Source: Persephonella sp.
Lineage (GTDB): Bacteria > Aquificota > Aquificia > Aquificales > Hydrogenothermaceae
Direction of reading: 5' to 3'
DNA: 46,966 bases
Assembly (NCBI RefSeq): GCF_015487465.1
Contig: NZ_WFPS01000077.1
Coordinates: 1 to 46,966, forward strand
The position numbers were made by a program, and so were the translations under genes. The notes beneath the pieces are model-generated. The model worked only from the letters and a program-made list of their open reading frames with translations. It searched no databases and had not been told where the DNA came from. Positions 14,497 through 36,567 of this stretch are shown here, piece by piece. Every line of letters starts with the position of its first letter. Within the stretch, counting starts at the first letter, position 1.

Positions 14497-15444
14497 TTGT
14501 GGATTTTAGGAGAGCATGATGAACAGGTCAGGAAAACGAGAACTTCAATACTTGAGCTTGTTGGAAATACCCCTCTGTTAAAACTAAAAAAGTCCCTTCC
14601 AGATGATCTGAAGGATAAACCTGTTGAGATATATGCAAAGCTTGAAGGTTATAACCCTGGCGGTTCTGTTAAAGACAGGCCAGCAACAAGAATGATACTT
14701 GAGGCTATCCAGTCAGGAAAACTGACAAAGGACAAAATAATTCTTGATGCCACATCTGGAAACACAGGTATAGCTCTGGCGATGGTAGGTACAGCTTTAG
14801 GATACAGGGTTGAACTTGCTATGCCGTCAAATGTTAGTGAAGAAAGAAAAAGAATTATTCAGGCATACGGTGCAAAGATACATTATACAGATCCTCTCCA
14901 GAGCACAGATGGGGCTATTATTTTCGTTAGGGATCTTATAGAAAAATACCCTGACAGATACTGCTATATTGACCAGTATAACAATGATGCCAACTGGAGA
15001 TCTCATTTCTATTCAACTGCTGTTGAGATATGGGAGCAGACACAACACAGAATAACCCATTTTATAGCAGGTATAGGAACAGGTGGAACAATAATGGGAA
15101 CAGGTAGAAGACTGAAAATATTTAATCCTGAGATACAGATTATAGGTGTTCAACCTGATAGCCCATTTCATGGAATAGAAGGTCTTAAATATATTGAGAC
15201 TTCCATAAAACCGGGTATTTTTGATGAAAACAGGCTAGACAGAACTATGTTTATCGGAACTGATATTGCATATCAAAGGGCAAGGGAGCTTGCCAGAAAA
15301 GAGGGGGTTTTTGTTGGACAGTCCTCCGGTGCTGCTTTTGAAGCTGCTATTCAGATAGCAAGGGAGATTAAAGAGGGTGTTGTCGTTTTCGTCTGTCCCG
15401 ATGGAGGAGAGAAATATCTTACCACAGCCTTATGGGAGTTTTAG
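14497..15444 (+). CDS. cysM: Cysteine synthase (CysM-like, PLP-dependent)
   Basis: An O-acetylserine (or related) sulfhydrylase that makes cysteine from an activated serine and sulfide with pyridoxal phosphate. Lys59 in GGSVKDRP forms the Schiff base, SGNTG at 87-91 binds substrate and phosphate, and GTGGTIMGTGR grips the cofactor phosphate. The 315 residues fit. An internal GGSVKDRPA plus the shorter C-terminus favour the CysM branch over CysK, though the exact acceptor (O-acetylserine, O-phosphoserine or thiosulfate) is open. The only reasonable start is a TTG, preceded by AAGGTGACGGG; nearby ATGs are out of frame. The 3' end overlaps gpgS by 4 bp, convergently. Confidence 0.93.
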   Translation: MWILGEHDEQVRKTRTSILELVGNTPLLKLKKSLPDDLKDKPVEIYAKLEGYNPGGSVKDRPATRMILEAIQSGKLTKDKIILDATSGNTGIALAMVGTALGYRVELAMPSNVSEERKRIIQAYGAKIHYTDPLQSTDGAIIFVRDLIEKYPDRYCYIDQYNNDANWRSHFYSTAVEIWEQTQHRITHFIAGIGTGGTIMGTGRRLKIFNPEIQIIGVQPDSPFHGIEGLKYIETSIKPGIFDENRLDRTMFIGTDIAYQRARELARKEGVFVGQSSGAAFEAAIQIAREIKEGVVVFVCPDGGEKYLTTALWEF

Positions 15445-16655
15445 GGATCCTCATTATCCGCTTTTACAGCCTGAATTAACTTTTCTGAAATGTCAGGAAG
15501 TGCAGCTCTTACTCTGACCCATGCAGACATCAGTGGAACGCCTATAGGGTCTTTCCTGAAGTCTTCTTCAGCAACCTTTAATGCCTGAACAAAAGCCTCA
15601 ATCGCCTCAATCTCACTGTGTCTGTCATACTCAAGACCGTTTATGAGAGATAGGGCATTGTATTTTTCTATAGCGTATCTTGCTTCCTGAAGGTATGTTG
15701 TTATCAGTGTTCTGAAAAAGCCATTTGAAAAAACAAACCCATCATGTGCCAGAACCCTGAAAAGGGTTTTTGCAATATCAGAAGCCATCTTAACAAGACC
15801 TTCAGAAGGTGTCCCTTTTTTCAGTTTCTGGTGCTTGTGTTCATAAGTTTCCATAACCTCAACCTGGCATACCCTGTTAAAAGATGTGTTGTTGTAAACT
15901 TCGCTCAGCATAGAAACCTCAAGTCCCCATGTTGGGGATATTCTTATACCCCTTGCCAGACTTCTTATGAATGAAAACTCTCCAGATAGTGCATATCTGA
16001 AGCTGTCAAGATATACTAAAAACTGTTTGTAGCCTAATATTTTCATCAAAGCTCTAATAAGCGGAGTGTAAAACAGCCTTGTAACCCTTCCATATAACTT
16101 ATTTGTTACTCTGGCGTAATAGCCTTTTGCAAATTCAAAATCAAGGGCTGGAGATACTACCGGATAAAATAGCCTTGCAGGAAGTTCTCTTGAGTAGTTA
16201 ACGATGTCACAGTCGTGGAGAGCAATGGCATAGGCTTTTATATCCGATAAAATGTATCCTAAAGACATCCATACAGACCTTCCTTTTCCTGGAATGTCCA
16301 CATTAAATCCTGCCTCTCTAAGCAGGTTGTAAAGCTCTTGCATTCTGGGACCGTCGTGCCATATAACATCAACCTGTGTAGGAATGTCTGACATTATTCT
16401 TTTTACCTTTCTAAATTCTTCCTCTGAAGCTCTATCTAAAGAAAGGACTATTTTATACAGGTATCTTATATTTTTTAGTTCTTCTACGATCTTTGGCATA
16501 GCAGGACCTTCAAACTCAGAGTAGAGAGATGGAAGCAGAAGAACCATATTTCTTCTCTGGGCAAAAAGTTCAAGCTCATACTCAAGTTCTTCAAGTGATC
16601 TACTACCTAATTTCTGTAGTGTGGTTATAACACCATTTTGAAAAAAGTCAGCCAT
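15441..16655 (-). CDS. gpgS: Glucosyl-3-phosphoglycerate synthase (GT81)
   Basis: Transfers glucose from an NDP-glucose to 3-phosphoglycerate, giving glucosyl-3-phosphoglycerate, the precursor of the compatible solute glucosylglycerate. It is a GT-A-type transferase of 404 residues. The GKGRSVWMSLG stretch (about 123-133) and the metal-binding D-C-D at 148-150 (HDCDIV) are the nucleotide-sugar and cation sites. The C-terminal half is helical. The identification rests on recognition of the family and the adjacent gpgP and ggs genes; the same three genes are reported in an operon-like cluster in Persephonella marina. AGGAGGG precedes the ATG at an ideal distance. It is the last gene of the long phosphate/solute operon, 9 bp after ggs. 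Confidence 0.92.
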   Translation of the reverse strand: MADFFQNGVITTLQKLGSRSLEELEYELELFAQRRNMVLLLPSLYSEFEGPAMPKIVEELKNIRYLYKIVLSLDRASEEEFRKVKRIMSDIPTQVDVIWHDGPRMQELYNLLREAGFNVDIPGKGRSVWMSLGYILSDIKAYAIALHDCDIVNYSRELPARLFYPVVSPALDFEFAKGYYARVTNKLYGRVTRLFYTPLIRALMKILGYKQFLVYLDSFRYALSGEFSFIRSLARGIRISPTWGLEVSMLSEVYNNTSFNRVCQVEVMETYEHKHQKLKKGTPSEGLVKMASDIAKTLFRVLAHDGFVFSNGFFRTLITTYLQEARYAIEKYNALSLINGLEYDRHSEIEAIEAFVQALKVAEEDFRKDPIGVPLMSAWVRVRAALPDISEKLIQAVKADNEDP

Positions 16656-16664
16656 ATGACCCTC

Positions 16665-17915
16665 CTAATCCCACAATTTTATAAGGTAGTCTTTCATATT
16701 TTCAAACATTTCTGCCTGCTTACTGTAGTATACTTCAGCTTCTTCGTCTGTTTTGTCCCTAAGCTCATTAACAAGAGAAGCCACCCTACCGTTGTATAGA
16801 GGTATCATTGTATCAAGAACTTTAAATTTTTGTCTTGGTGTTGTGTGGAAGTAATCTGCATATCTGTAAACAATTCTGACCCAGGTTTCTATAGGCATTA
16901 TAAAGTTTTCAGGATTTTCTTCCATAAAAAGTTTTTCAATCACTTTGAAATCCTCAGGTTCTAAAATAGACCTCCAGACACCGCCAAAGTTGTTGTAACC
17001 TAATTTGAAGTATTCAATCAAGCTCTGCTGGTCTATCTCAAAAGGTTCCGGTTCTATTCCTACAAAATCTCCAACTATAGGGACATCTTTTGATCCTTTA
17101 ATTTTTTTCCAGAAGTAGTCATAATTTTCCATAAGCCTGAATATTGTTCCAACAACCTCCCTATACATGTGAGAAAGGTCTCTGCCTGGATCTTTTTCTT
17201 GATGTATCTTCGCCCCTAATCTTGCCTGACATATTTTATAGCCGTCAACAATCGCTGTTGTCGTCATCCATATATCAATCCCAAATTTTGCAACATCAGT
17301 CTCCCAAACATCTTTATCTAGGTAATCTTTTATGAGCTTTCGGGACATTCCAAAATCTCCACCTATTGGCTGTCTTATCCTGTAGCCGTATAATGCTCTC
17401 GTAAGATTGTAGGCTATGGTGTTCGTTATTGTTCCGTCAAATTTGTATCTTTTGTAATAAGGGCATACATAATCGTATCCTTCGTAAATCGGCTCTAATA
17501 TATTTTTCACCCATTCTGGTGTTATTGATTTAAGATCTGAATCAAATGTTGCTATGGCTTCAGCTCTTAAAAACTCTGCCGCCTCAAAAACCGCCCTTAA
17601 TGCTGATCCTTTACCGGGTATGCCTCTGTATATGGTCACAATTTTTTCAATGTTATATTTGGATATGTCTATCTCCTGTGCTACCTCTCTTGTGTCGTCT
17701 GTTGAACCTCCGTCGGAAACAAAAATCAGACATTTCTTGTCATTAAAGTATTTATCAAGCCCTTTTGCTACCTGCTCAATAACATGTGATATAGTGAACT
17801 GGCTGTAGTAAGATGGTATTCCTACTACAATATCTGCATATCCTAAGTGTTCTATTTTTTTCCTTGCGTCTTCCCTTAAAGCTGTTGAAAATCTTGCTCT
17901 TGGCAATACTAACAT
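16665..17915 (-). CDS. ggs: Glucosylglycerate synthase (one-step pathway)
   Basis: A GT-A-fold glycosyltransferase of 416 residues. From the ATG at 17915: VSDGGSTDDT at about 66-75 (nucleotide binding), GKGSALRA at 101-108 and the metal-binding DSD at 125-127, followed by the acceptor region IGGDFGMSR. In Persephonella marina the glycosyltransferase lying with gpgS and gpgP was shown to make glucosylglycerate directly from ADP-glucose and D-glycerate, and this gene occupies that place. GGAGG lies 5 nt before the ATG at 17915; the in-frame TTG four codons earlier overlaps it. Only 1 bp separates it from the glycerate kinase stop. Confidence 0.88.
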   Translation of the reverse strand: MLVLPRARFSTALREDARKKIEHLGYADIVVGIPSYYSQFTISHVIEQVAKGLDKYFNDKKCLIFVSDGGSTDDTREVAQEIDISKYNIEKIVTIYRGIPGKGSALRAVFEAAEFLRAEAIATFDSDLKSITPEWVKNILEPIYEGYDYVCPYYKRYKFDGTITNTIAYNLTRALYGYRIRQPIGGDFGMSRKLIKDYLDKDVWETDVAKFGIDIWMTTTAIVDGYKICQARLGAKIHQEKDPGRDLSHMYREVVGTIFRLMENYDYFWKKIKGSKDVPIVGDFVGIEPEPFEIDQQSLIEYFKLGYNNFGGVWRSILEPEDFKVIEKLFMEENPENFIMPIETWVRIVYRYADYFHTTPRQKFKVLDTMIPLYNGRVASLVNELRDKTDEEAEVYYSKQAEMFENMKDYLIKLWD

Positions 17916-17916
17916 A

Positions 17917-19212
17917 TTATCCTCCAATCATCATTATTGTTATGTCCATAACGTTTGTTCCTGTATAGCCTGTTTTTATGCTGTCTCCTGTTTTTGTGAA
18001 AAGGCTATTTGAGTCGTTGTTTTCAAGGTATTTGTATAGATCAACTCCCATTTTTTTTGCTTTTTCATAAGAGCTGCTATCAACTACAGCCCCTGCATCT
18101 TCAGAATTTCCGTCAATACCGTCTGTTCCTCCTGAAAGTAAAACAATATTTTTAGTGTCTTTTATCTCTATTAGAGCAGAAAGACACAACTCCTGATTTC
18201 TACCTCCTTTTCCATTTCCTTTTACTGTCACTGTAGTTTCCCCCCCAAATAAAAGACATACAGGTGGATCAAAGGGATTAGAGCTTTTTTTTATCTCTTT
18301 TCCTATTGAAACTACTGCTTTGGCTACCTCTCTTGCTTCCCCTTTTAGTTGTGATGTCATTATGTATGTTTTTATACTTTTTTCTGCTTTTTCTTTTATT
18401 TTTTTTAGTGCATCTATATTACTTCCTACTATGTAATGTTTTATGTTTGGATTTTCTTTTTTCGGGGTTTCCTTTATTTTACCTTTTGTTCCTTTTAGAA
18501 TGACTTTTTTTACATTTTGTGGTAAATCATCAAATATGTTGTGTTTTTTCAAAATAGTATACGCATCTTTGTAGGTTGATGGATCGTAGTATAAAGGGGC
18601 TGAGCCTATTGTAAAGAGATCATCTCCTATCACATCAGATATGACCAGAACTATTCCTTTTGCTTTTGTGGAATGTCCCAGCCTTCCTCCTTTGATCATA
18701 GAAAGATGTTTTCTTATTATGTTTATCTCTTCAATGGGAACAGAATGTTTTAGCAGTATCTGTGTTGTTATCTGAAGATCTTTGAGTGTTAACGGTGTAA
18801 TAGGTTTTTCTATTAAGGCTGAACTTCCCCCTGATAGAAGATACACAAAAAAGTCGTCTTTTTTCAAAGAAGATATCTCTTTTAGGAGGGTTTCTCCTGC
18901 TTTAAGGCTTTTTTCATCTGGTACAGGGTGGTTTCCTTCTATAACTTTTATTTTTTTAAGTTTTTGTGTGTAGTTGCAGACAACTGTTCCGTCTATGATG
19001 TAGTCTAAGAACATTTTTTCTATGGACTTTGCCATCTCAACAGATGCTTTACCACTGCCGTATACATAAATTCCTTTTTTTAAAGGGTATTTATCACCTT
19101 CTATCTCTATATGGCTGTTTTTTAAAGATATTTTTTCAGGAATCAGGTTTTCTGGTTTTACAGAATTTATCCCGTAAAGGAACAGGTCAATACTTAGCTT
19201 TCTCAAATTCAT
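17917..19212 (-). CDS. Glycerate kinase (MOFRL/GckA family)
   Basis: Phosphorylates D-glycerate with ATP; this family usually makes 2-phosphoglycerate. The 431 residues match the GckA/TtuD type with an N-terminal Rossmann-like domain (YGSGKASVEMA; LLSGGSSAL; GGRLG) and a C-terminal MOFRL domain (LFGGETTVTVKGNGKGGRNQEL, GTDGIDG, GYTGTNVMD). The ATG at 19212 has GGAG 8 nt upstream and overlaps the gpgP stop by 26 bp. The context is telling: the gene lies between the two alternative glucosylglycerate routes, one using D-glycerate and the other 3-phosphoglycerate, so it may balance these acceptors or salvage glycerate released when the solute is degraded. Confidence 0.92.
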   Translation of the reverse strand: MNLRKLSIDLFLYGINSVKPENLIPEKISLKNSHIEIEGDKYPLKKGIYVYGSGKASVEMAKSIEKMFLDYIIDGTVVCNYTQKLKKIKVIEGNHPVPDEKSLKAGETLLKEISSLKKDDFFVYLLSGGSSALIEKPITPLTLKDLQITTQILLKHSVPIEEINIIRKHLSMIKGGRLGHSTKAKGIVLVISDVIGDDLFTIGSAPLYYDPSTYKDAYTILKKHNIFDDLPQNVKKVILKGTKGKIKETPKKENPNIKHYIVGSNIDALKKIKEKAEKSIKTYIMTSQLKGEAREVAKAVVSIGKEIKKSSNPFDPPVCLLFGGETTVTVKGNGKGGRNQELCLSALIEIKDTKNIVLLSGGTDGIDGNSEDAGAVVDSSSYEKAKKMGVDLYKYLENNDSNSLFTKTGDSIKTGYTGTNVMDITIMMIGG

Positions 19213-19999
19213 CAATTAATCTCCACACAACCTCGTTCCAGCCTTTACTTCCCGGATAAGAAGCTCTGATAATACCTTTGATATTGGTTTTTTCATACTC
19301 CTTATTAATTTTGGGTATCAAAACAGGAATGTCAACGACCTGAAGCATAGGAATATCATTTTTGCTGTCTCCTATGCCTACTGTCTTTATACTGCCTATA
19401 TTTTTTCTAAATATATCTGCTGTGAGCTTTACAGCTTTACCTTTGTCCTGATCTTTTCCTATAAGGTGGTAGAACCTTCCCCCTTTTGTAATTTTAAGTC
19501 CGTATTCTTCTGCCTTTTTTTCAAGCAGTGGAAGTTTTGATATGTCTTCTAAAATAAAAGGCTCTGTAAACTCCCTTATTTTTGAGTATTTTGCTTTTTC
19601 AACCGGCAGGTCTGTAAGTTTTGCTATTTCTTCTATGCTCATGTCTCCAAATCCTCTGATTGGTATCTCTTTTTTTACTTTGTTGATAAACTGTCTTATG
19701 TAACTGTAATCTCTGCCTAAAATTAGAGTTCTGTAGCTGTTATATTTTGGTAGGTCAAGTCTGAAGTTTCTGTAGTTCTCAGGGAAAAAAACAGCTGCCC
19801 CATTTTCCACAATAAATGGTTCATTTATCCCGATCTCTTTCTGGAGAAGTTCTATCTCAATTCTTGTTTTGCTTGAGGTGAATATAAGGGGAATTTTTAG
19901 TTTTTTTATTCTGTTCAGTGAAGGAAGGGCATCTTTGTAAGAGTAATCCTCATGGTTCAGAAGTGATCCATCAAGATCTGTAAATATCACTAACATCAT
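19187..19999 (-). CDS. gpgP: Glucosyl-3-phosphoglycerate phosphatase (HAD, MpgP-like)
   Basis: Removes phosphate from glucosyl-3-phosphoglycerate to give glucosylglycerate. A 270-residue HAD hydrolase of the Cof/MpgP type: motif I TDLDGS with nucleophile D8 and acid D10, motif II FTSSKTR, and motif IV GIGDSKND. The cap domain lies at about residues 85-180. The family is shared with mannosyl-3-phosphoglycerate phosphatase; the neighbouring gpgS and ggs, and the absence of an mpgS, point to the glucosyl substrate, as reported for P. marina. Its ATG shares one base with the stop of the PhoR-like gene (TAATG), so translation is probably coupled to it. It overlaps the glycerate kinase gene by 26 bp. 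Confidence 0.92.
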   Translation of the reverse strand: MMLVIFTDLDGSLLNHEDYSYKDALPSLNRIKKLKIPLIFTSSKTRIEIELLQKEIGINEPFIVENGAAVFFPENYRNFRLDLPKYNSYRTLILGRDYSYIRQFINKVKKEIPIRGFGDMSIEEIAKLTDLPVEKAKYSKIREFTEPFILEDISKLPLLEKKAEEYGLKITKGGRFYHLIGKDQDKGKAVKLTADIFRKNIGSIKTVGIGDSKNDIPMLQVVDIPVLIPKINKEYEKTNIKGIIRASYPGSKGWNEVVWRLIDEFEKAKY

Positions 20000-20991
20000 T
20001 AATTAACCGGTAGTTTTACTGTAAATTTTGAACCTTTCCCGATCTGGCTTTCCACTTCAACCTTTCCGTTATGTGCTTCGGTTATGTGTTTTACTATGGA
20101 AAGTCCAAGTCCTGTTCCTCCGACATTTCTGCTCCTTGATTTATCCACCCTGTAAAATCTTTCAAATATTAGCGGAAGGCTTTCTTTAGGTATTCCTATT
20201 CCTGTGTCTGAAACTGTTATTAAAACATATCTATCCTCTTTTTCTGCATTTATCAAAACCGACCCACCATGCTTGTTGTATTTTATTGCATTTTCTATGA
20301 GGTTTTTCAATAAAATACTGAATTTTTTTTCATCAACAAAGACTGTAAAATCTGAAGAAACGGAGTTTTTAATCTTTACCATTTTTTCAGAAGCTATATG
20401 CTGAAGATCATCAATTATCTGGTTTACAAGTCCTTTAAGTTTAACCTTTTTCTTCTGTATTTTTTCCTCTTTTGACTCTAACTTTGCAAGAATGAGCAGA
20501 TCATTAATCAAACTGTCCATCTGGTGTATTCTTTTTTTTGCCTTGTTTAAAAATTCCTTTATTACTTGCGGGTCATTTTCATCTTCCAGCGTTTCAATAA
20601 CACCTTTCAGAACGGTTATAGGTGTTTTAAGCTCGTGTGACACATTGGAAACAAAATCCTTTTTTGCCTGTTTGTAGATCTCAAATGGTGTTATGTCTTG
20701 AAAGTGTATGACCTTATTTCCATTAATGTTCAAAACTTTTGCCAGAAATATGTCCCCGTTTATTACTATTTCTTCCTGAAGCTGGTTTTTGATGTCAGCA
20801 CTTATCAGGGAATATAAGTAGTTGTTTTCAACAACCTGTGAAAACCTTTTCCCTTCAGGATTTTTCACATTAAGAAGTTCTTTTGCATACCTGTTCATAT
20901 ACTGTATATTTTTGTTTTGATCAATAACAATAAGCCCTTCTTTAAGAAAATCAAGAAAACCTACAAGGGTATCCTTGAGAACATTTTCCAT
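19999..20991 (-). CDS. phoR: PhoR-like sensor histidine kinase, soluble
   Basis: A 330-residue histidine kinase: PAS domain at about residues 10-105, HisKA dimerisation domain with phospho-acceptor H119 in SHELKTP, and a HATPase domain with N-box NLIENAIKY, G1 SDTGIGIP, F-box FERFYRV and G2 GGTGLGL. Position at the end of pst-phoU identifies it as the PhoR-type phosphate sensor. Unlike classical PhoR it has no N-terminal transmembrane helices, so it must reach PstSCAB and PhoU from the cytosol. No response regulator gene is next to it or anywhere in the window. The phoU stop and its start share one base, and its stop shares one base with the gpgP start. Confidence 0.85.
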   Translation of the reverse strand: MENVLKDTLVGFLDFLKEGLIVIDQNKNIQYMNRYAKELLNVKNPEGKRFSQVVENNYLYSLISADIKNQLQEEIVINGDIFLAKVLNINGNKVIHFQDITPFEIYKQAKKDFVSNVSHELKTPITVLKGVIETLEDENDPQVIKEFLNKAKKRIHQMDSLINDLLILAKLESKEEKIQKKKVKLKGLVNQIIDDLQHIASEKMVKIKNSVSSDFTVFVDEKKFSILLKNLIENAIKYNKHGGSVLINAEKEDRYVLITVSDTGIGIPKESLPLIFERFYRVDKSRSRNVGGTGLGLSIVKHITEAHNGKVEVESQIGKGSKFTVKLPVN

Positions 20992-21647
20992 TATTCACCT
21001 AAGTTCTGGTGTCTGAGCATCTTTCCTTCTTTCATGTAAATAACTTCTTCTGCAAGGTTTGTTGCAATGTCTGCAACCCTTTCAAGATTTGAAGATACAG
21101 TTATCAGTCTTATTCCAACTTTAATATTTTTAGGATCTTCAACCATGTATGTGTATATCTCCCTTATTATCTGTTCATGTAGGGCATCAACCTTATCGTC
21201 CCTTGATATAACCTCCCTTGCAAGTTCTGTGTCAAGAGTTTCAAGGGATTTTACAGCATCTTTAACCATACCTATAACAATATCAGTCATAACCGGAAGA
21301 TCAACATACTCCTTCAGTTTAGGTTTGGTTAAAATCCTTTCTGCCTGCTCTTTTATGTTTTCTGCATGATCCCCTATCCTTTCAAGGTCTCTATTTACAA
21401 AAAGATCCATAACAAGCATTCTCAGATATTTTGCTTCAGGCTGAAATCTTGCTATTGTTGTTATTATGAGAGTTTCATTTTCAACCTCCATCTGATCAAC
21501 CTGAGGTTCAAGTTCATCAACAACTTTCAGGTATTCCGGATTGTGTTCAATTATAGCTTTGACAGCATTTTCAATCATAAGATCTGCAAGTTCTGCCATT
21601 TTGATAAGTCTGTCTCTTATTTCCTCAAGTCTTGGTTTTAAAAGCAT
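20991..21647 (-). CDS. phoU: Phosphate signalling regulator PhoU
   Basis: A 218-residue all-helical protein made of two PhoU three-helix bundles. It restrains PstSCAB and relays its state to the PhoR kinase when phosphate is plentiful. The family pattern E-x-x-x-D in each repeat is visible in the segments NRDLERIGDHAENI and SSNLERVADIATNLAEEV, which bind multinuclear metal clusters in characterised homologues. GGGGGAAG precedes the ATG. It lies 12 bp after pstB and shares one base with the start of the kinase gene. Confidence 0.97.
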   Translation of the reverse strand: MLLKPRLEEIRDRLIKMAELADLMIENAVKAIIEHNPEYLKVVDELEPQVDQMEVENETLIITTIARFQPEAKYLRMLVMDLFVNRDLERIGDHAENIKEQAERILTKPKLKEYVDLPVMTDIVIGMVKDAVKSLETLDTELAREVISRDDKVDALHEQIIREIYTYMVEDPKNIKVGIRLITVSSNLERVADIATNLAEEVIYMKEGKMLRHQNLGE

Positions 21648-21659
21648 TACTTCCCCCTT

Positions 21660-22427
21660 TTATCCAAATCTTCCACTGACATAATCTTCTGTCAGTTTTT
21701 CTTTAGGTGCTGTAAATATAATATCAGTTTTATCAAATTCAATAAGCTCCCCCAGATACATAAATGCTGTATAATCCGAGACCCTTGCAGCCTGCTGCAT
21801 GTTATGTGTAACTATTATTATTGTTACACTTTCTTTTAATGAAACAACCAGTTCTTCTATCTTGCTTGTTGAGATTGGATCAAGGGCTGATGTAGGCTCA
21901 TCAAAAAGGAGAACCTCAGGCTCTACGGCGAGGGCTCTTGCTATAACAAGCCTCTGCTGTTGACCTCCAGAAAGTCCTGATGCCGGACTTTTAAGCCTGT
22001 CCTTGACTTCGTCCCAGAGGGCGGCTTGCTTCAGGGCTTTTTCAACCCTTTCTTCCAACACATTTCTGTCTTTTATTCCTCTAAGTTTAAGCCCGTAGGC
22101 AACATTATCAAATATACTCATTGGAAATGGTGTTGGTTTTTGGAAGACCATACCTACTTTTGACCTGAGTTTTATAAGGTCATAGTCATCTTTAAGTATA
22201 TTCTCTCCGTCAAGAAGTATTTCCCCCTTGTATCTGTTTCCTGGATATAAATCATGCATTCTATTGAATGATCTTAAAAGGGTTGTTTTCCCACAGCCTG
22301 AGGGACCTATCAGTGCTGTTACCTTTTTTTCATAAACAGGAATATTTATATTTTTCAAAGCAGGGTCCTTTGAACCTGCATACCAGAAGTAAAAGTTTTT
22401 TACCTTTATCTTCTCCTTATCAGCCAT
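21660..22427 (-). CDS. pstB: Phosphate ABC transporter ATP-binding protein PstB
   Basis: The ATPase of the high-affinity phosphate importer PstSCAB, 255 residues. Walker [11 protein letters not shown]-loop [14 protein letters not shown] signature LSGGQQQRL, Walker [12 protein letters not shown] and the H-loop VTHNMQQA are all intact. The [11 protein letters not shown] stretch is characteristic of PstB. It lies 8 bp after pstA and 12 bp before phoU. Confidence 0.98.
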
Positions 22428-22435
22428 TTATTTAC

Positions 22436-23518
22436 CTACCCTTTGTATTTTAGATGTATTATATACCTTGCGACAACGGTAACAAAAAGTATAAAAAATG
22501 TGATAACAAAAGATGCAGCCCATGCTTTCGTATGCCAGTCTTCATAAGGACCTGTAGCATAAACAAATATGGTAACTGTAAGAGAGGATATAGGTTCATT
22601 CATATTTGTCGTAAAGTAAGAGTTGTTAAAAGATGTAAATAGGAGAGGAGCTGTTTCTCCTGCAACCCGTGATATGGCAAGAATAATACCTGTAAATATT
22701 CCTGTCATCGCAGCCCTTATAACTATGTCTTTTATAACATTGTAGTAAGATGCCCCCAGTGCAAAAGCAGCTTCCCTTAAAGACCATGGAACAAGGGATA
22801 GCATATCTTCGGTTGTTCTTAAAACAACAGGTATCATTATAAATGCGAGGGCTGCAGCACCTGCCCACCCATTAAATCCCTGAATTTTATCTACAAGTTT
22901 TGGAAGTAGATACACAAAAAGAAAAATACCGAATAAAATAGTCGTGGTTGTTGTTGCCAGATTGAGAAGTTTGACTGCATTTTCAGAAGACAGTTTTATT
23001 AATTTGAGAATTACATTGGTTATAATAAAATTTAAAACTGACCCAAATACCAATGAAAGCATCGCAGACAAAAAGCCTACCGCAAGAACACCTCCAAGAT
23101 TTATATGTCCGATAGGTTTAACAAGAATTGCATATATAAAAGTACCTACAACGATAGATGGGACGCTTACCATTATGTCAGACAAGATGGAAACAGTTTT
23201 GGCAAATTTTGTTCCCCTTGCATACTCGGCAATGAATATTCCAGAAAGGATACCTATTGGAACCCCTATAATTACTGCAAAAAAGACTATTTCCAGTTGA
23301 CCTATAAAAGCGTTTCTCAGCCCTCCTCCCGGTATGCCCGGAGGTGCAGGATCTTCAGTAAACAACTCAAGACTAAGACCTGATATCCCGTGTCTCAGAA
23401 CATCAAAAAGTATAAAACCAAGCCAGAACAGACCAAGAAAGGCTGCAGCTGTTGATAGAGAGAGAGCAATAAAACTTACTATTTTTCTTTTTTTTACATA
23501 TTTTTCTTCGTATCTCAT
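22436..23518 (-). CDS. pstA: Phosphate ABC transporter permease PstA
   Basis: A membrane subunit of PstSCAB. The 360 residues are longer than the usual 280-300. There is a central hydrophobic insertion at about residues 160-215 (LLNLATTTTTILFGIFLF) between otherwise normal permease segments. The EAA cytoplasmic loop that contacts PstB is present (LREAAFALGASYYNVIKDI), as is SVPSIVVGTF. Roughly seven to eight membrane helices can be counted. Its ATG overlaps the pstC stop as ATGA. Confidence 0.95.
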   Translation of the reverse strand: MRYEEKYVKKRKIVSFIALSLSTAAAFLGLFWLGFILFDVLRHGISGLSLELFTEDPAPPGIPGGGLRNAFIGQLEIVFFAVIIGVPIGILSGIFIAEYARGTKFAKTVSILSDIMVSVPSIVVGTFIYAILVKPIGHINLGGVLAVGFLSAMLSLVFGSVLNFIITNVILKLIKLSSENAVKLLNLATTTTTILFGIFLFVYLLPKLVDKIQGFNGWAGAAALAFIMIPVVLRTTEDMLSLVPWSLREAAFALGASYYNVIKDIVIRAAMTGIFTGIILAISRVAGETAPLLFTSFNNSYFTTNMNEPISSLTVTIFVYATGPYEDWHTKAWAASFVITFFILFVTVVARYIIHLKYKG

Positions 23519-24456
23519 CTTGAATATCCTCTCTCAACTTTGAGGAGGAACAGTTTTGCTACTGCAAGTATTATAAAGCTAAGAACAAACAGAATAAGAG
23601 CAAGGTAGAAAAGAGAAGAAAGGTAAATATCCGAGTCTGCTTCGGTGAACTCATTTGCAAGGGTTACGGTTATGGTTGCTGCAGCATCAAACAAAGATGT
23701 TGTTATCTCATGCCTGTTTCCCAGAACAAATGCAACAGCCATTGTTTCCCCTAAGGCTCTTCCAAGTGCAAGAACAATTCCTCCATAAATTCCAAGTTTT
23801 GCATAAGGTATCATAACATCTTTCACAACGTCCCATTTTGTTGCACCAAGTGCGTAGGCAGACTCTTTCATTAGATCCGGAGTAAGATTTAGAGAATCCC
23901 TTGATATGCTTGCGATAAATGGAATTATCATAATACTTAAAACGACGCTTGCTGTGAAAAGGTCAATTCCCTGAGGTGTTCCTTCAAAAATTTTACCTAT
24001 TAATGGGATCTGTCCCAGTGTCTTCTGAATAGCAGGTTCTATATATTCAGACATGATTGGTGCGAGTGTAAAAAGTCCCCACATTCCGTATATAATACTG
24101 GGTATGGCAGCAAGCATTTCTATAGCTATACCTACAGGTGTTTTTAATATGTGTGGTGAAACTTCAGACAAAAAGATAGCTATTCCAAGGGCTACAGGAA
24201 TAGCAAGGGTCAAGGATAAAATTGTGGTAACAACTGTTCCAAACAAAGGTGCTGCTGCACCAAATACCTGCTTCACAGGATCCCATTCCTCTGTAAATAT
24301 AAAGTTTATTATTCCGAATTTATGTATTGCCAGGGAGGATTCTTTATACAGAACAACAATTACTGAGAAAATGAGAGTTAAGACCAGAAAGGAAGCAGAA
24401 AATGAAATAATTCCAAAAAATATATCCTTTAGAGGAAGTTTTCCTATTTTTTTCAT
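23515..24456 (-). CDS. pstC: Phosphate ABC transporter permease PstC
   Basis: The partner permease of PstA, 313 residues with about six membrane helices. Typical motifs are AAIPSIIYGMWGL, the EAA loop KESAYALGATKWDVVKDV and LGRALGETMAV. It follows pstS after a 108-bp gap that holds a hairpin with a T-run, which probably lowers expression of the permeases relative to the binding protein. Its last four bases overlap pstA. Confidence 0.97.
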   Translation of the reverse strand: MKKIGKLPLKDIFFGIISFSASFLVLTLIFSVIVVLYKESSLAIHKFGIINFIFTEEWDPVKQVFGAAAPLFGTVVTTILSLTLAIPVALGIAIFLSEVSPHILKTPVGIAIEMLAAIPSIIYGMWGLFTLAPIMSEYIEPAIQKTLGQIPLIGKIFEGTPQGIDLFTASVVLSIMIIPFIASISRDSLNLTPDLMKESAYALGATKWDVVKDVMIPYAKLGIYGGIVLALGRALGETMAVAFVLGNRHEITTSLFDAAATITVTLANEFTEADSDIYLSSLFYLALILFVLSFIILAVAKLFLLKVERGYSR

Positions 24457-24493
24457 CTACCCCTACCTGTTTTATATCTTTATCCATTATAAC

Positions 24494-24513
24494 AAAAAAG
24501 GGCGTAAAAGCCC
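24494..24513 (-). terminator. Intra-operon terminator/attenuator between pstS and pstC
   Basis: On the minus strand GGGC, a six-base loop and GCCC are followed directly by six T residues. A short four-base-pair stem suggests partial termination, which would leave excess pstS transcript, as expected for a binding protein. A TATAAT follows at 24486-24491 on the same strand and could restart transcription. Confidence 0.5.
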
Positions 24514-24564
24514 ATGAAAAAGTACTAAGATTAGCAGCAGACCGAACTGAGAATTAACAGCCTA

Positions 24565-25569
24565 TTATGGATTGATTCCTTTTTCTTTCCAGTATGAGTA
24601 TATTTTTTGTTTAAGTTCTTTTGGAAGAGGAACATAATCAAGCTTTTCTGCGATTTTGTCTCCTTTTTCAAAAGCCCACTTAAAAAATCTGTTTACTTTT
24701 TTGTTTGTTTCTGTTTTTTCTCTTGCTTCAAGAATAAATGAAGCTCCTGCTATAGGCCATGCTTTTTTTCCGGGAGCGTTAACCATCCATAAATAGAAAT
24801 CTTTTTTTGGATCAAAATTTGCTGTAGCTCCTGCTGCTTTGAATGTTTCTATACTTGGTGCGACAAAGTTTCCTGCAGGATTTTTAAGAAGGGTGTATGT
24901 TAGCCTGTTTTGTTTTGCGTAAGCAAACTCAACATAACCTATTGAATACTTTAATCTTTTTACATAGTTGGCAACACCCTCATTTCCTTTTCCCCCTATA
25001 CCAACAGGCCATTTTACTGCTTTTCCTGAGCCTACCTTTTCTTTCCATTCAGGACAGGCACCTGATAGGTATGTTGTGAATATTGCTGTTGTTCCTGACC
25101 CATCAGCCCTGTGAACAACCTGTATCTCTTTGTGGGGAAGGTCCAACTTAGGGTTTATTTTTTTGATCTGTTCGTTATCCCAATACTTTATTTTTCCCAG
25201 ATATATGTTGCATATGATTTCTGGATCAAGTTTAAGCTTACCGGATCTTACACCGGGAATGTTAACAACAGGAACAACCCCTCCTATTATCGCAGGGAAC
25301 TGGTATAGTTTGTATTCTTTGAGCTTTTCTGGAGGTAGAGGGGCATCAGATGCTCCAAAATCAACTGTTCTGTTTTTTATCTGCCTTACACCACCGCCTG
25401 ATCCGATAGACTGGTAATTCAGTTTTATACCTGTTTCTTTATAGTACATGTAAGCCCACGCTGCATAAACAGGATATGGGAATGTTGCACCTGCTCCATT
25501 GATAGTTTCTCCAGCAACAGCTATGTTTAACAGTCCTGCTACAATCACACCTGCCGTAATTTTTTTCAT
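24565..25569 (-). CDS. pstS: Phosphate-binding periplasmic protein PstS
   Basis: The periplasmic phosphate receptor for PstSCAB, 334 residues. It has a Sec signal peptide (MKKITAGVIVAGLLNIAVAG) with cleavage before ETINGAGATFPYP. Conserved phosphate-binding segments are GAGATFP, IGSGGG, DFGASDAPL and HRADGSGTT. No lipobox is present, so the protein is soluble in the periplasm. It follows the porin gene after 13 bp. Confidence 0.97.
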   Translation of the reverse strand: MKKITAGVIVAGLLNIAVAGETINGAGATFPYPVYAAWAYMYYKETGIKLNYQSIGSGGGVRQIKNRTVDFGASDAPLPPEKLKEYKLYQFPAIIGGVVPVVNIPGVRSGKLKLDPEIICNIYLGKIKYWDNEQIKKINPKLDLPHKEIQVVHRADGSGTTAIFTTYLSGACPEWKEKVGSGKAVKWPVGIGGKGNEGVANYVKRLKYSIGYVEFAYAKQNRLTYTLLKNPAGNFVAPSIETFKAAGATANFDPKKDFYLWMVNAPGKKAWPIAGASFILEAREKTETNKKVNRFFKWAFEKGDKIAEKLDYVPLPKELKQKIYSYWKEKGINP

Positions 25570-25582
25570 GTCTACTCCTCCT

Positions 25583-26743
25583 TTAATAATGAACTTCTGC
25601 AGTTATCATGTATTTTTTGTAATCTTTGCTGTTATTTTTATCATAGTCTGCTGTTATCCCGTTTACGATCCATGTTACATATTTGTTCATGTGCCATGCT
25701 ATACCGTATATGTACATCTTCCTATCGTATGTATCTTTTTTTGAGTTCCATCTGTCGTATCTTCCAAAGATCGATACCTTGTGTTTCATTATCGGTCTTA
25801 TCTCAAAGTTAAATGAGTATCCATTCCCTTTGTTTTCTGAGCCTTTATACCAATCAGATTTTATGTATTGACCTGCTATAAGGAATAAAGGCTGGTTGTA
25901 AACCCCGTGTATCTGGTAGACGGTAAGATTATCGTCTGATCCTCTATGGTTAAAACTGTTGAGTGCATGGAGTGATACATTTGCATAGGTTTGTGAAAGA
26001 GGCTTAGGTTTTTTCTTTCCACCTCCAAGGATGTGCCATGTTGCCCTGCCCTCAATCATAGGTTTATTTCCTTTACTGCCTTTGTCTTTTCTTCCTATAT
26101 GATCGTATCCTTCCCCATCAAATACACCGTATTCTGCGGAGAAATACTCTGTTTTTGTTTTAAAATCAATCCCTGCATCTGCTGAGGGAAGAAGGTAAGC
26201 ACCATCTTTTGCCTCATAAAATGTTTTTGAGATAGATCTGAACCACCACCCTGAATGCTCTTCATAATCAAGCCATGGTGTATGCGCAATACCAAGCTCA
26301 AATCCTGTTGCAGGGATTATCTTGGAAATATCCTTGTAAAGATAGAGATGTTTTATTTTAAGACTGATCTCATTTCCCTGATTTGGATCTTCATTCTTGT
26401 ACTGTTTTGAAATATCAAAGGTAAATCTGAGGTGGTCTTTTTTATTAAAGAAAAACTTTGTTACAAAGTATCCTCTTCTTATCTCAAAGTTTCCCTCATC
26501 TTTCCCATTGTTTTTGTCTGTGAAGGTGTACCCTATATAAGCCTTACCGCCGAACTTTAATTTTTTTGATTTTGAAGAAACTGGAGTTTCTTTTTTTGAT
26601 AGATCTTTTTCAAGCTGGACAGCTTCTTCTTTTGTTAAAATTCCTTTTTCATAAAGCTTTTTTACAACAGGATTTGATATTTCCCCTGCAAAGACTGATC
26701 CAGCAAGACCAAAAGAAATGGCAGTTAATAAAACTTTCTTCAT
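25583..26743 (-). CDS. Phosphate-selective porin (OprP/OprO-like)
   Basis: An outer-membrane beta-barrel of 386 residues. There is a signal peptide (MKKVLLTAISFGLAGSVFAG), then a short SLH-like/coiled segment with KLYEKGILTKEEA at about residues 29-45, then alternating aromatic strands, and a C-terminal tyrosine as in BAM-assembled porins (TAEVHY). The strand pattern and the YIGYTF, GYFVTKFFF and EGRATWHI motifs match the Porin_O_P family. As first gene of the pst operon, it would let phosphate or polyphosphate cross the outer membrane under starvation. GGGAGG precedes the ATG. TTAAnA direct repeats upstream may be a Pho-type control site. Confidence 0.85.
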   Translation of the reverse strand: MKKVLLTAISFGLAGSVFAGEISNPVVKKLYEKGILTKEEAVQLEKDLSKKETPVSSKSKKLKFGGKAYIGYTFTDKNNGKDEGNFEIRRGYFVTKFFFNKKDHLRFTFDISKQYKNEDPNQGNEISLKIKHLYLYKDISKIIPATGFELGIAHTPWLDYEEHSGWWFRSISKTFYEAKDGAYLLPSADAGIDFKTKTEYFSAEYGVFDGEGYDHIGRKDKGSKGNKPMIEGRATWHILGGGKKKPKPLSQTYANVSLHALNSFNHRGSDDNLTVYQIHGVYNQPLFLIAGQYIKSDWYKGSENKGNGYSFNFEIRPIMKHKVSIFGRYDRWNSKKDTYDRKMYIYGIAWHMNKYVTWIVNGITADYDKNNSKDYKKYMITAEVHY

Positions 26744-26794: not shown

Positions 26795-26821
26795 TATTAA
26801 ATTTTTGTTAAAATTTCTTAA
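26795..26821 (-). promoter_or_regulatory. Candidate Pho-box-like direct repeats upstream of the pst operon
   Basis: Minus strand: TTAAGA (26821-26816), TTAACA (26811-26806) and TTAATA (26800-26795) are spaced 10 and 11 bp start to start, one helical turn apart. This resembles the TTAACA-type repeats bound by PhoP-class regulators. The first two also form an inverted repeat TGTTAA-N6-TTAACA at 26806-26823. The region is very AT-rich, so this is suggestive only. Confidence 0.35.
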
Positions 26822-26824
26822 CAT

Positions 26825-36489: not shown

Positions 36490-36567
36490 AAATTCCTCCT
36501 TTTCAAGAAATACCAGGTTCAAATATATTAGAATATTCTAACTGAAAATTAATAGTAAGAAGGTGGT

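What the first reader, a model, noticed from the sequence alone, without database searches (positions are those of the whole stretch)
15441..26743. Phosphate-uptake and glucosylglycerate genes fused into one eleven-gene operon
Porin-pstS-pstC-pstA-pstB-phoU-phoR runs directly into gpgP-glycerate kinase-ggs-gpgS. The PhoR-like stop and gpgP start share a base (TAATG), and all other junctions except pstS-pstC are 13 bp or less, or overlap. No terminator is visible between the two halves. Coupling high-affinity phosphate uptake to a compatible-solute pathway whose intermediate is a phosphate ester is unusual. It could make solute synthesis respond to phosphate supply, since GpgP releases inorganic phosphate and Ggs needs none. 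The gene cluster itself is known in P. marina; the linkage to Pst as a regulatory unit is the less described part.
Basis: partly seen in the sequence, partly recalled or inferred. Interest (0 to 1): 0.8.

Follow-up and report, generated by a model that had tools for sequence, protein, structure and literature searches.

The report
Solute genes joined to phosphate operon
In one group of hot-vent bacteria the genes that make a salt-protecting sugar acid sit at the tail of the phosphate-uptake gene cluster; the arrangement is real, but comparison with relatives suggests a lineage-specific accident of gene order rather than a conserved regulatory link.

Summary
The eleven genes are as described, and phoR and gpgP are tightly joined (gap -4 to +3 nt in 12 of 12 genomes; no TATAAT in the 200 nt before gpgP). 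"One operon" needs correcting: the pstS|pstC gap holds a terminator-like hairpin in 20 of 23 relatives and TATAAT in 22 of 23 (shuffles 0.8 and 2.8), so pstC to gpgS is probably a second transcription unit. The one strict Pho-box-like match in this genome lies before the porin.

Comparison does not support phosphate coupling. (1) In four Persephonella genomes 36-40 of 40 window genes keep their order, so the kept linkage is background. (2) 0 of 11 other GpgS-bearing Aquificota genomes are linked; gpgP there often follows other genes, without a Pho box. (3) Elsewhere phoU/phoR is followed by other genes. (4) One Persephonella keeps pst-phoR without the cassette. (5) 0 of 67 GpgS loci not titled Aquificota carry PhoU, PstS, PstC or PstA.

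Best reading: a lineage-specific operon tail, probably transcribed with phoR; phosphate responsiveness is possible but untested.

The parts
26795..26822 (-). Pho-box-like triple TTAANA repeat with 10- and 11-bp steps (GTTAAGAAATTTTAACAAAAATTTAATA)
   Evidence: similar sites before porin or pstS in relatives, including three g9 loci not used for training; strict pattern matches once in G000
25583..26743 (-). putative outer-membrane porin heading the pst cluster
24565..25569 (-). pstS, phosphate-binding protein
   Evidence: TIGR00975 385.4 bits, cut-off 205
24494..24513 (-). terminator-like hairpin GGGC-TTTTAC-GCCC plus TTTTTT between pstS and pstC
   Evidence: (20 of 23 loci); weak 4-bp stem here
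24486..24494 (-). extended -10-like element TGTTATAAT before pstC
   Evidence: TATAAT in 22 of 23, TGnTATAAT in 17 of 23
23515..24456 (-). pstC permease
   Evidence: TIGR02138 301.8 bits, cut-off 196.45
22436..23518 (-). pstA permease
   Evidence: TIGR00974 260.2 bits, cut-off 193.45
21660..22427 (-). pstB ATPase
   Evidence: TIGR00972 394.8 bits, cut-off 343.2
20991..21647 (-). phoU
   Evidence: TIGR02135 178.5 bits, cut-off 130.25
19999..20991 (-). PhoR-like histidine kinase with no transmembrane segment by hydropathy
   Evidence: HisKA + HATPase_c; PnpS 317.5 and PhoR 296.1 bits, both under cut-off; maximum 19-residue hydropathy 1.17 against 2.97 in pstC
19187..19999 (-). gpgP, glucosyl-3-phosphoglycerate phosphatase (start 19999 or 19996)
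   Evidence: TIGR01486 239.4 bits, cut-off 164.75; MpgP structures, best E 1.8e-34
17917..19215 (-). glycerate 2-kinase (DUF4147 + MOFRL)
   Evidence: Pfam; NF041176 304.2 bits, under cut-off 550
16665..17909 (-). ggs, glucosylglycerate synthase candidate
   Evidence: MGS_GT and Glycos_transf_2 over cut-off; weak matches to GpgS and mannosylglycerate synthase structures
15441..16655 (-). gpgS, glucosyl-3-phosphoglycerate synthase
   Evidence: NF040724 344.5 bits over its whole length, under cut-off 700; 62-93% identical to the nine relatives aligned

Best explanation
A portable glucosylglycerate cassette (gpgP-glycerate kinase-ggs-gpgS) became fixed behind phoR in the ancestor of this Persephonella group and g7, extending the pst-phoU-phoR cluster. 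Shown by sequence: a Pho-box-like site before the porin; a terminator-like hairpin and a recurrent -10-like element between pstS and pstC; no promoter-like element between phoR and gpgP. Inferred: transcript 1 (porin-pstS) starts at the phosphate-controlled promoter and largely ends after pstS; transcript 2 (pstC to gpgS) starts at the TGTTATAAT promoter, plus read-through from transcript 1. The solute genes are then made together with PstCAB-PhoU-PhoR, so they are basally expressed and perhaps modestly raised in phosphate limitation, but the link is a by-product of gene order rather than a conserved control. The pathway itself makes glucosylglycerate as recalled for P. marina: a 3-phosphoglycerate route by GpgS/GpgP and a one-step route by Ggs.
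For: Tight junction in 12 of 12 genomes with no TATAAT in the 200 nt upstream. Hairpin and -10 boundary in 20 and 22 of 23 loci. Strict Pho-box pattern: 10 sites in 8 genomes, of which 8 (one per genome) lie before this porin or, in G088, beside ribBA at a contig end, and 2 lie elsewhere (G080, G081); 0 in the reversed control. Persephonella background synteny 36-40 of 40 genes in four genomes, 25 of 40 contiguous in G080. 0 of 11 other GpgS-bearing Aquificota genomes linked; gpgP there sits behind other genes with overlaps or short gaps in several. phoU/phoR elsewhere is followed by other genes. Cassette missing at the same site in G086, nested among linked genomes. 0 of 67 GpgS loci not titled Aquificota with PhoU, PstS, PstC or PstA.
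Against: The junction stays within -4 to +3 nt although phoR and gpgP have diverged (to about 67 and 62% identity in G080), and g7 retains it where synteny further out is lost, which could reflect selection. The hairpin in the window is only 4 bp, and none was found in G089, G085 or G086, so read-through may be large in this species. In g9 and one g6 locus the TATAAT lies at other distances from pstC and is less surprising by shuffles. The terminator rule was chosen after reading most of the gaps. No transcript data exist here.
Confidence: 0.72

Rival explanations
1. Selected regulatory coupling: the gpg genes were recruited into the Pho operon so that a phosphorus-free anionic solute is made, and phosphate released by GpgP, when phosphate is scarce.
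For: Tight junction with no separate promoter seen; Pho-box-like site at the head of the cluster; retained in 11 of 14 genus genomes and in the one g7 genome; weak hairpin in this species.
Against: Retention in the genus equals background synteny; no Pho box at unlinked gpg loci; other upstream partners elsewhere; cassette absent in G086 with pst-phoR kept; terminator/-10 boundary between the Pho-box promoter and the gpg unit. Triggers named in passages of a review are salinity and nitrogen starvation (PMC11009771).
Confidence: 0.17
2. The gpg cassette has its own, unrecognised promoter inside phoR, and responds to salt independently of pst.
For: Non-consensus or alternative-sigma promoters would be missed by the patterns used; in G069 and G123 the gene upstream of gpgP is divergent, so the cassette can evidently be promoted separately.
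Against: 0 of 12 genomes have TATAAT or TGnTAnAAT in the 200 nt before gpgP; no conserved promoter-like stretch stands out in the junction alignment (read by eye).
Confidence: 0.1

Closest known systems
pstSCAB-phoU operon with Pho box (E. coli, Bacillus subtilis, cyanobacteria; recalled, not from a call)
   Same: pstS, pstC, pstA, pstB, phoU order; Pho-box-like repeats ahead; a hairpin after pstS, as recalled for the B. subtilis pst transcript
   Different: phoR-like kinase without membrane segments; a solute cassette follows phoR
Persephonella marina glucosylglycerate genes (Costa et al. 2007, seen only as a reference entry; the single-step Ggs work is recalled)
   Different: this work places the set behind phoR and compares the linkage across Aquificota; whether the original papers note the neighbouring pst genes could not be read
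gpgP-glycerate kinase-gpgS cassettes in Campylobacterota, Flavobacteriia and other bacteria
   Same: same cassette order in many of them
   Different: no PhoU, PstS, PstC or PstA beside any of the 67 loci examined; ggs matched in only a minority

Membership tests
Pst/Pho operon | PstS, PstC, PstA, PstB, PhoU above a curated cut-off | tested here: met
   (one TIGR equivalog each; some other equivalog models stay under their cut-offs)
Pho regulon | Pho-box-like direct repeats at the head of the cluster, conserved | tested here: met
   not found in the two g6 loci; binding itself not testable
Pho regulon | PhoR sensor kinase above family cut-off, membrane-bound | tested here: not met
   TIGR02966 296.1 bits under cut-off 334.2; no transmembrane segment
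Pho regulon | PhoB-type regulator in the genome | tested here: inconclusive
   41 of 41 family genomes have a match to TIGR02154, 0 of 41 over its cut-off
Pho regulon (membership of the gpg genes) | phosphate-responsive expression of gpg genes | not testable with these tools
   no expression data
Glucosylglycerate pathway | GpgS homologue above NCBIfam equivalog cut-off | tested here: not met
   NF040724 344.5 bits, cut-off 700, whole-length match; function inferred from homology and cluster
Glucosylglycerate pathway | GpgP/MpgP-family HAD phosphatase | tested here: met
   TIGR01486 239.4 over 164.75; equivalog TIGR02461 216.2 under 244.35; structures
Glucosylglycerate pathway | Ggs/MGS-type glycosyltransferase | tested here: met
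   PF21969 34.3 bits over 27
Single operon | no terminator or promoter signal inside | tested here: not met
   pstS|pstC boundary, by pattern only

The most novel reading that the evidence does not exclude
In Persephonella and its neighbour genus, synthesis of a phosphorus-free anionic osmolyte has been placed under the phosphate-starvation response by read-through of a weak hairpin after pstS, so that cells short of phosphate shift their anion pool to glucosylglycerate and recover phosphate from 3-phosphoglycerate.
Probability: 0.15. Interest if true: 0.65.

Novelty: new variant of a known kind. Interest (0 to 1): 0.3.

Why it matters
It is a well-bounded case of a biosynthetic cassette attached to different upstream genes across genera of one family, which makes it possible to ask whether such joins change regulation. 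It also cautions against reading function from tight gene spacing in this phylum.

Tried and rejected
Whole-operon selection as the reason for conserved linkage: not accepted, because neighbours outside the cluster (labelled ribBA, cysM, ruvA by me) are as well kept. gpgS decay in G093: set aside, since phoR, ggs, glycerate kinase and cysM also fall into pieces there and completeness is 55%, so assembly error is likelier. G068 as an independent unlinked case: its contig is 99.98% identical over 11 kb to one of G076, so probably cross-binned; without it the unlinked count is 0 of 10. The first genome-wide Pho-box pattern was mis-spaced and its zero result is discarded; one search is the corrected run, on a partly different set of 8 genomes. 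The hairpin rule (4 pairs, 3 G-C, 6 T in 8) is laxer on stem length than that and was set after I had read 17 gaps; the same rule was applied to the shuffles. Literature: four searches listed no paper whose title or abstract start describes a pst-glucosylglycerate link; searches likewise served for background. Two searches on unrelated genes in Aquificales operons gave nothing that I used, so that general statement is recalled only. Passages were seen of PMC4227106, PMC11009771 and PMC10873239; no paper was read whole. Gene labels of the window outside the cluster and trpB- and leuS-like names of neighbours in other genomes are mine by eye; those confirmed by Pfam are.

Full report
Observation. 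On the minus strand from 26743 to 15441 lie a porin-like protein, pstS, pstC, pstA, pstB, phoU, a PhoR-like kinase, gpgP, glycerate 2-kinase, ggs and gpgS. The Pst proteins and PhoU exceed curated cut-offs; GpgS, glycerate kinase and PhoR are homologues that stay under the equivalog cut-offs. The porin has no Pfam match. gpgS ends against a convergent gene (cysM-like, my label) with a 4-bp overlap.

The phoR-gpgP junction. In 12 of 12 genomes with the junction assembled the gap is -4 to +3 nt, taking the start codon nearest the stop, and none has TATAAT or TGnTAnAAT in the preceding 200 nt. The pattern scan shows no minus-strand terminator there. Co-transcription is therefore likely, though not shown.

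The pstS-pstC boundary. In the window the 108-bp gap holds GGGC-TTTTAC-GCCC-TTTTTT running into TGTTATAAT. Over 23 Hydrogenothermaceae loci where both genes were found, a hairpin with T-run is present in 20 (0.82 expected from dinucleotide shuffles), TATAAT in 22 (2.76) and TGnTATAAT in 17 (0.16). The loci are related, so they are not independent draws, and the rule was set after reading 17 of them; but the hairpin sequences differ while the element recurs. In the window the stem is only 4 bp; in G089, G085 and G086 none was found. In the g6 and g9 loci the TATAAT is missing (G078) or at another distance from pstC. The cluster is thus best read as two units, with the gpg genes in the second.

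Pho box. A triple TTAANA repeat lies before the porin (26795-26822 here). A matrix trained on eight sites scores the window site at 37.0 and finds sites before pstS in three g9 loci not used for training (23.8 to 31.2); mononucleotide shuffles give 0.2 hits expected in 0.886 Mb at the threshold of 12. Weaker hits also occur: 13.0 at window 36527-36554, 14.3 and 16.0 in two g9 loci, 19.0 before pstC in G074, 17.1 before the porin in G104, and 12.2 in L040, 11 kb from its gpg cassette. No hit was found in the two g6 pst loci. In loci that include the relevant stretch, none lies in the pstS-pstC gap, between phoR and gpgP, or before the gpg cassettes of unlinked genera. A strict pattern gives 10 sites in 8 genomes: one each before this porin (in G088 beside ribBA at a contig end), and one further site each in G080 and G081.

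Synteny. GpgS occurs in 24 of 136 Aquificota genomes. In the window's genus (14 genomes) the phoR-gpgP link is present in 11, unresolved in 2 (G084, G085, contig ends) and absent in 1 (G086); it is present in the single g7 genome. In the other 11 GpgS-bearing genomes (g2, g3, g4, g5 and f5) 0 are linked (0 of 10 if the cross-binned G068 contig is left out). The control matters most for interpretation: of 40 window genes, 38, 40, 37 and 36 keep order in G081, G082, G083 and G092, with some insertions between them, and 25 are contiguous in G080.

Changing partners. gpgP overlaps an RND efflux gene by 4 bp in G065 and, with its longest reading frame, a 2-hydroxyacid dehydrogenase by 4 bp in G076; in g3 it follows a trpB-like gene and a small ORF, and in G072 and G073 lies on another contig than glycerate kinase-ggs-gpgS; in G077 it follows an HU gene by 41 nt; in G069 and G123 it appears to start its own unit. 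The 2-hydroxyacid dehydrogenase could be related through glycerate, so not every partner is unrelated. phoR overlaps an epimerase gene by 4 bp in G065, G069 and G066; phoU is followed by a murD-like gene in G072 and a ZnuA-like gene in G094. In G086 two small ORFs without a confident family fill the place of the cassette. In a tree of five pst-locus proteins G085/G086 fall inside a fully supported (1.000) clade with linked genomes, which suggests loss; inner nodes of that clade are weaker (0.31 and 0.72). G086 is about 70% complete, so a copy elsewhere is not excluded.

Wider survey. A scan of genome contigs with a GpgS alignment gave 372 relatives, of which the best 80 were kept; 13 are titled Aquificota, Hydrogenothermaceae or Persephonella. 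Of the other 67, 0 carry PhoU, PstS, PstC or PstA matches; a few have weak PstB or PhoR matches (27-38% identity) that I take for general ABC ATPases and kinases, and some loci are short.

Literature. A 2024 review (passages only, PMC11009771) ties glucosylglycerate to salinity and nitrogen starvation. The original P. marina enzyme papers were not held. Searches for a link to phosphate limitation or pst listed nothing on point; this covers only the open library.

Conclusion. The arrangement is real and lineage-specific; the proposed phosphate control of solute synthesis is possible through read-through but not supported by comparison.

Noticed in passing
L137 (G000 contig C87) 3738-5355: A second phoU/phoR pair, 84 and 63% identical to the window's, at a contig end; perhaps a contaminating contig in this assembly.
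   Followed up: partly
L046 (G068) and L045 (G076): Contigs from two binned genomes of different genera are 99.98% identical over 11 kb; probably cross-binning.
   Followed up: yes
L108 9234-9919: Two small ORFs without confident Pfam match replace the gpg cassette between phoR and cysM in G086.
   Followed up: partly
L033, L034, L109: In G083, G092 and G091 the reading frame after the Pho box matches the window porin only over its first 51 residues (55%), about 1.2 kb before pstS.
   Followed up: no
L050 8999-14456: G093 shows broken matches across gpgS, ggs, glycerate kinase and phoR, and in the neighbouring cysM, probably assembly error.
   Followed up: partly
L114 15466-15493: A second strong Pho-box-like site (28.9) in G069, before a stretch that resembles the start of the porin.
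   Followed up: no
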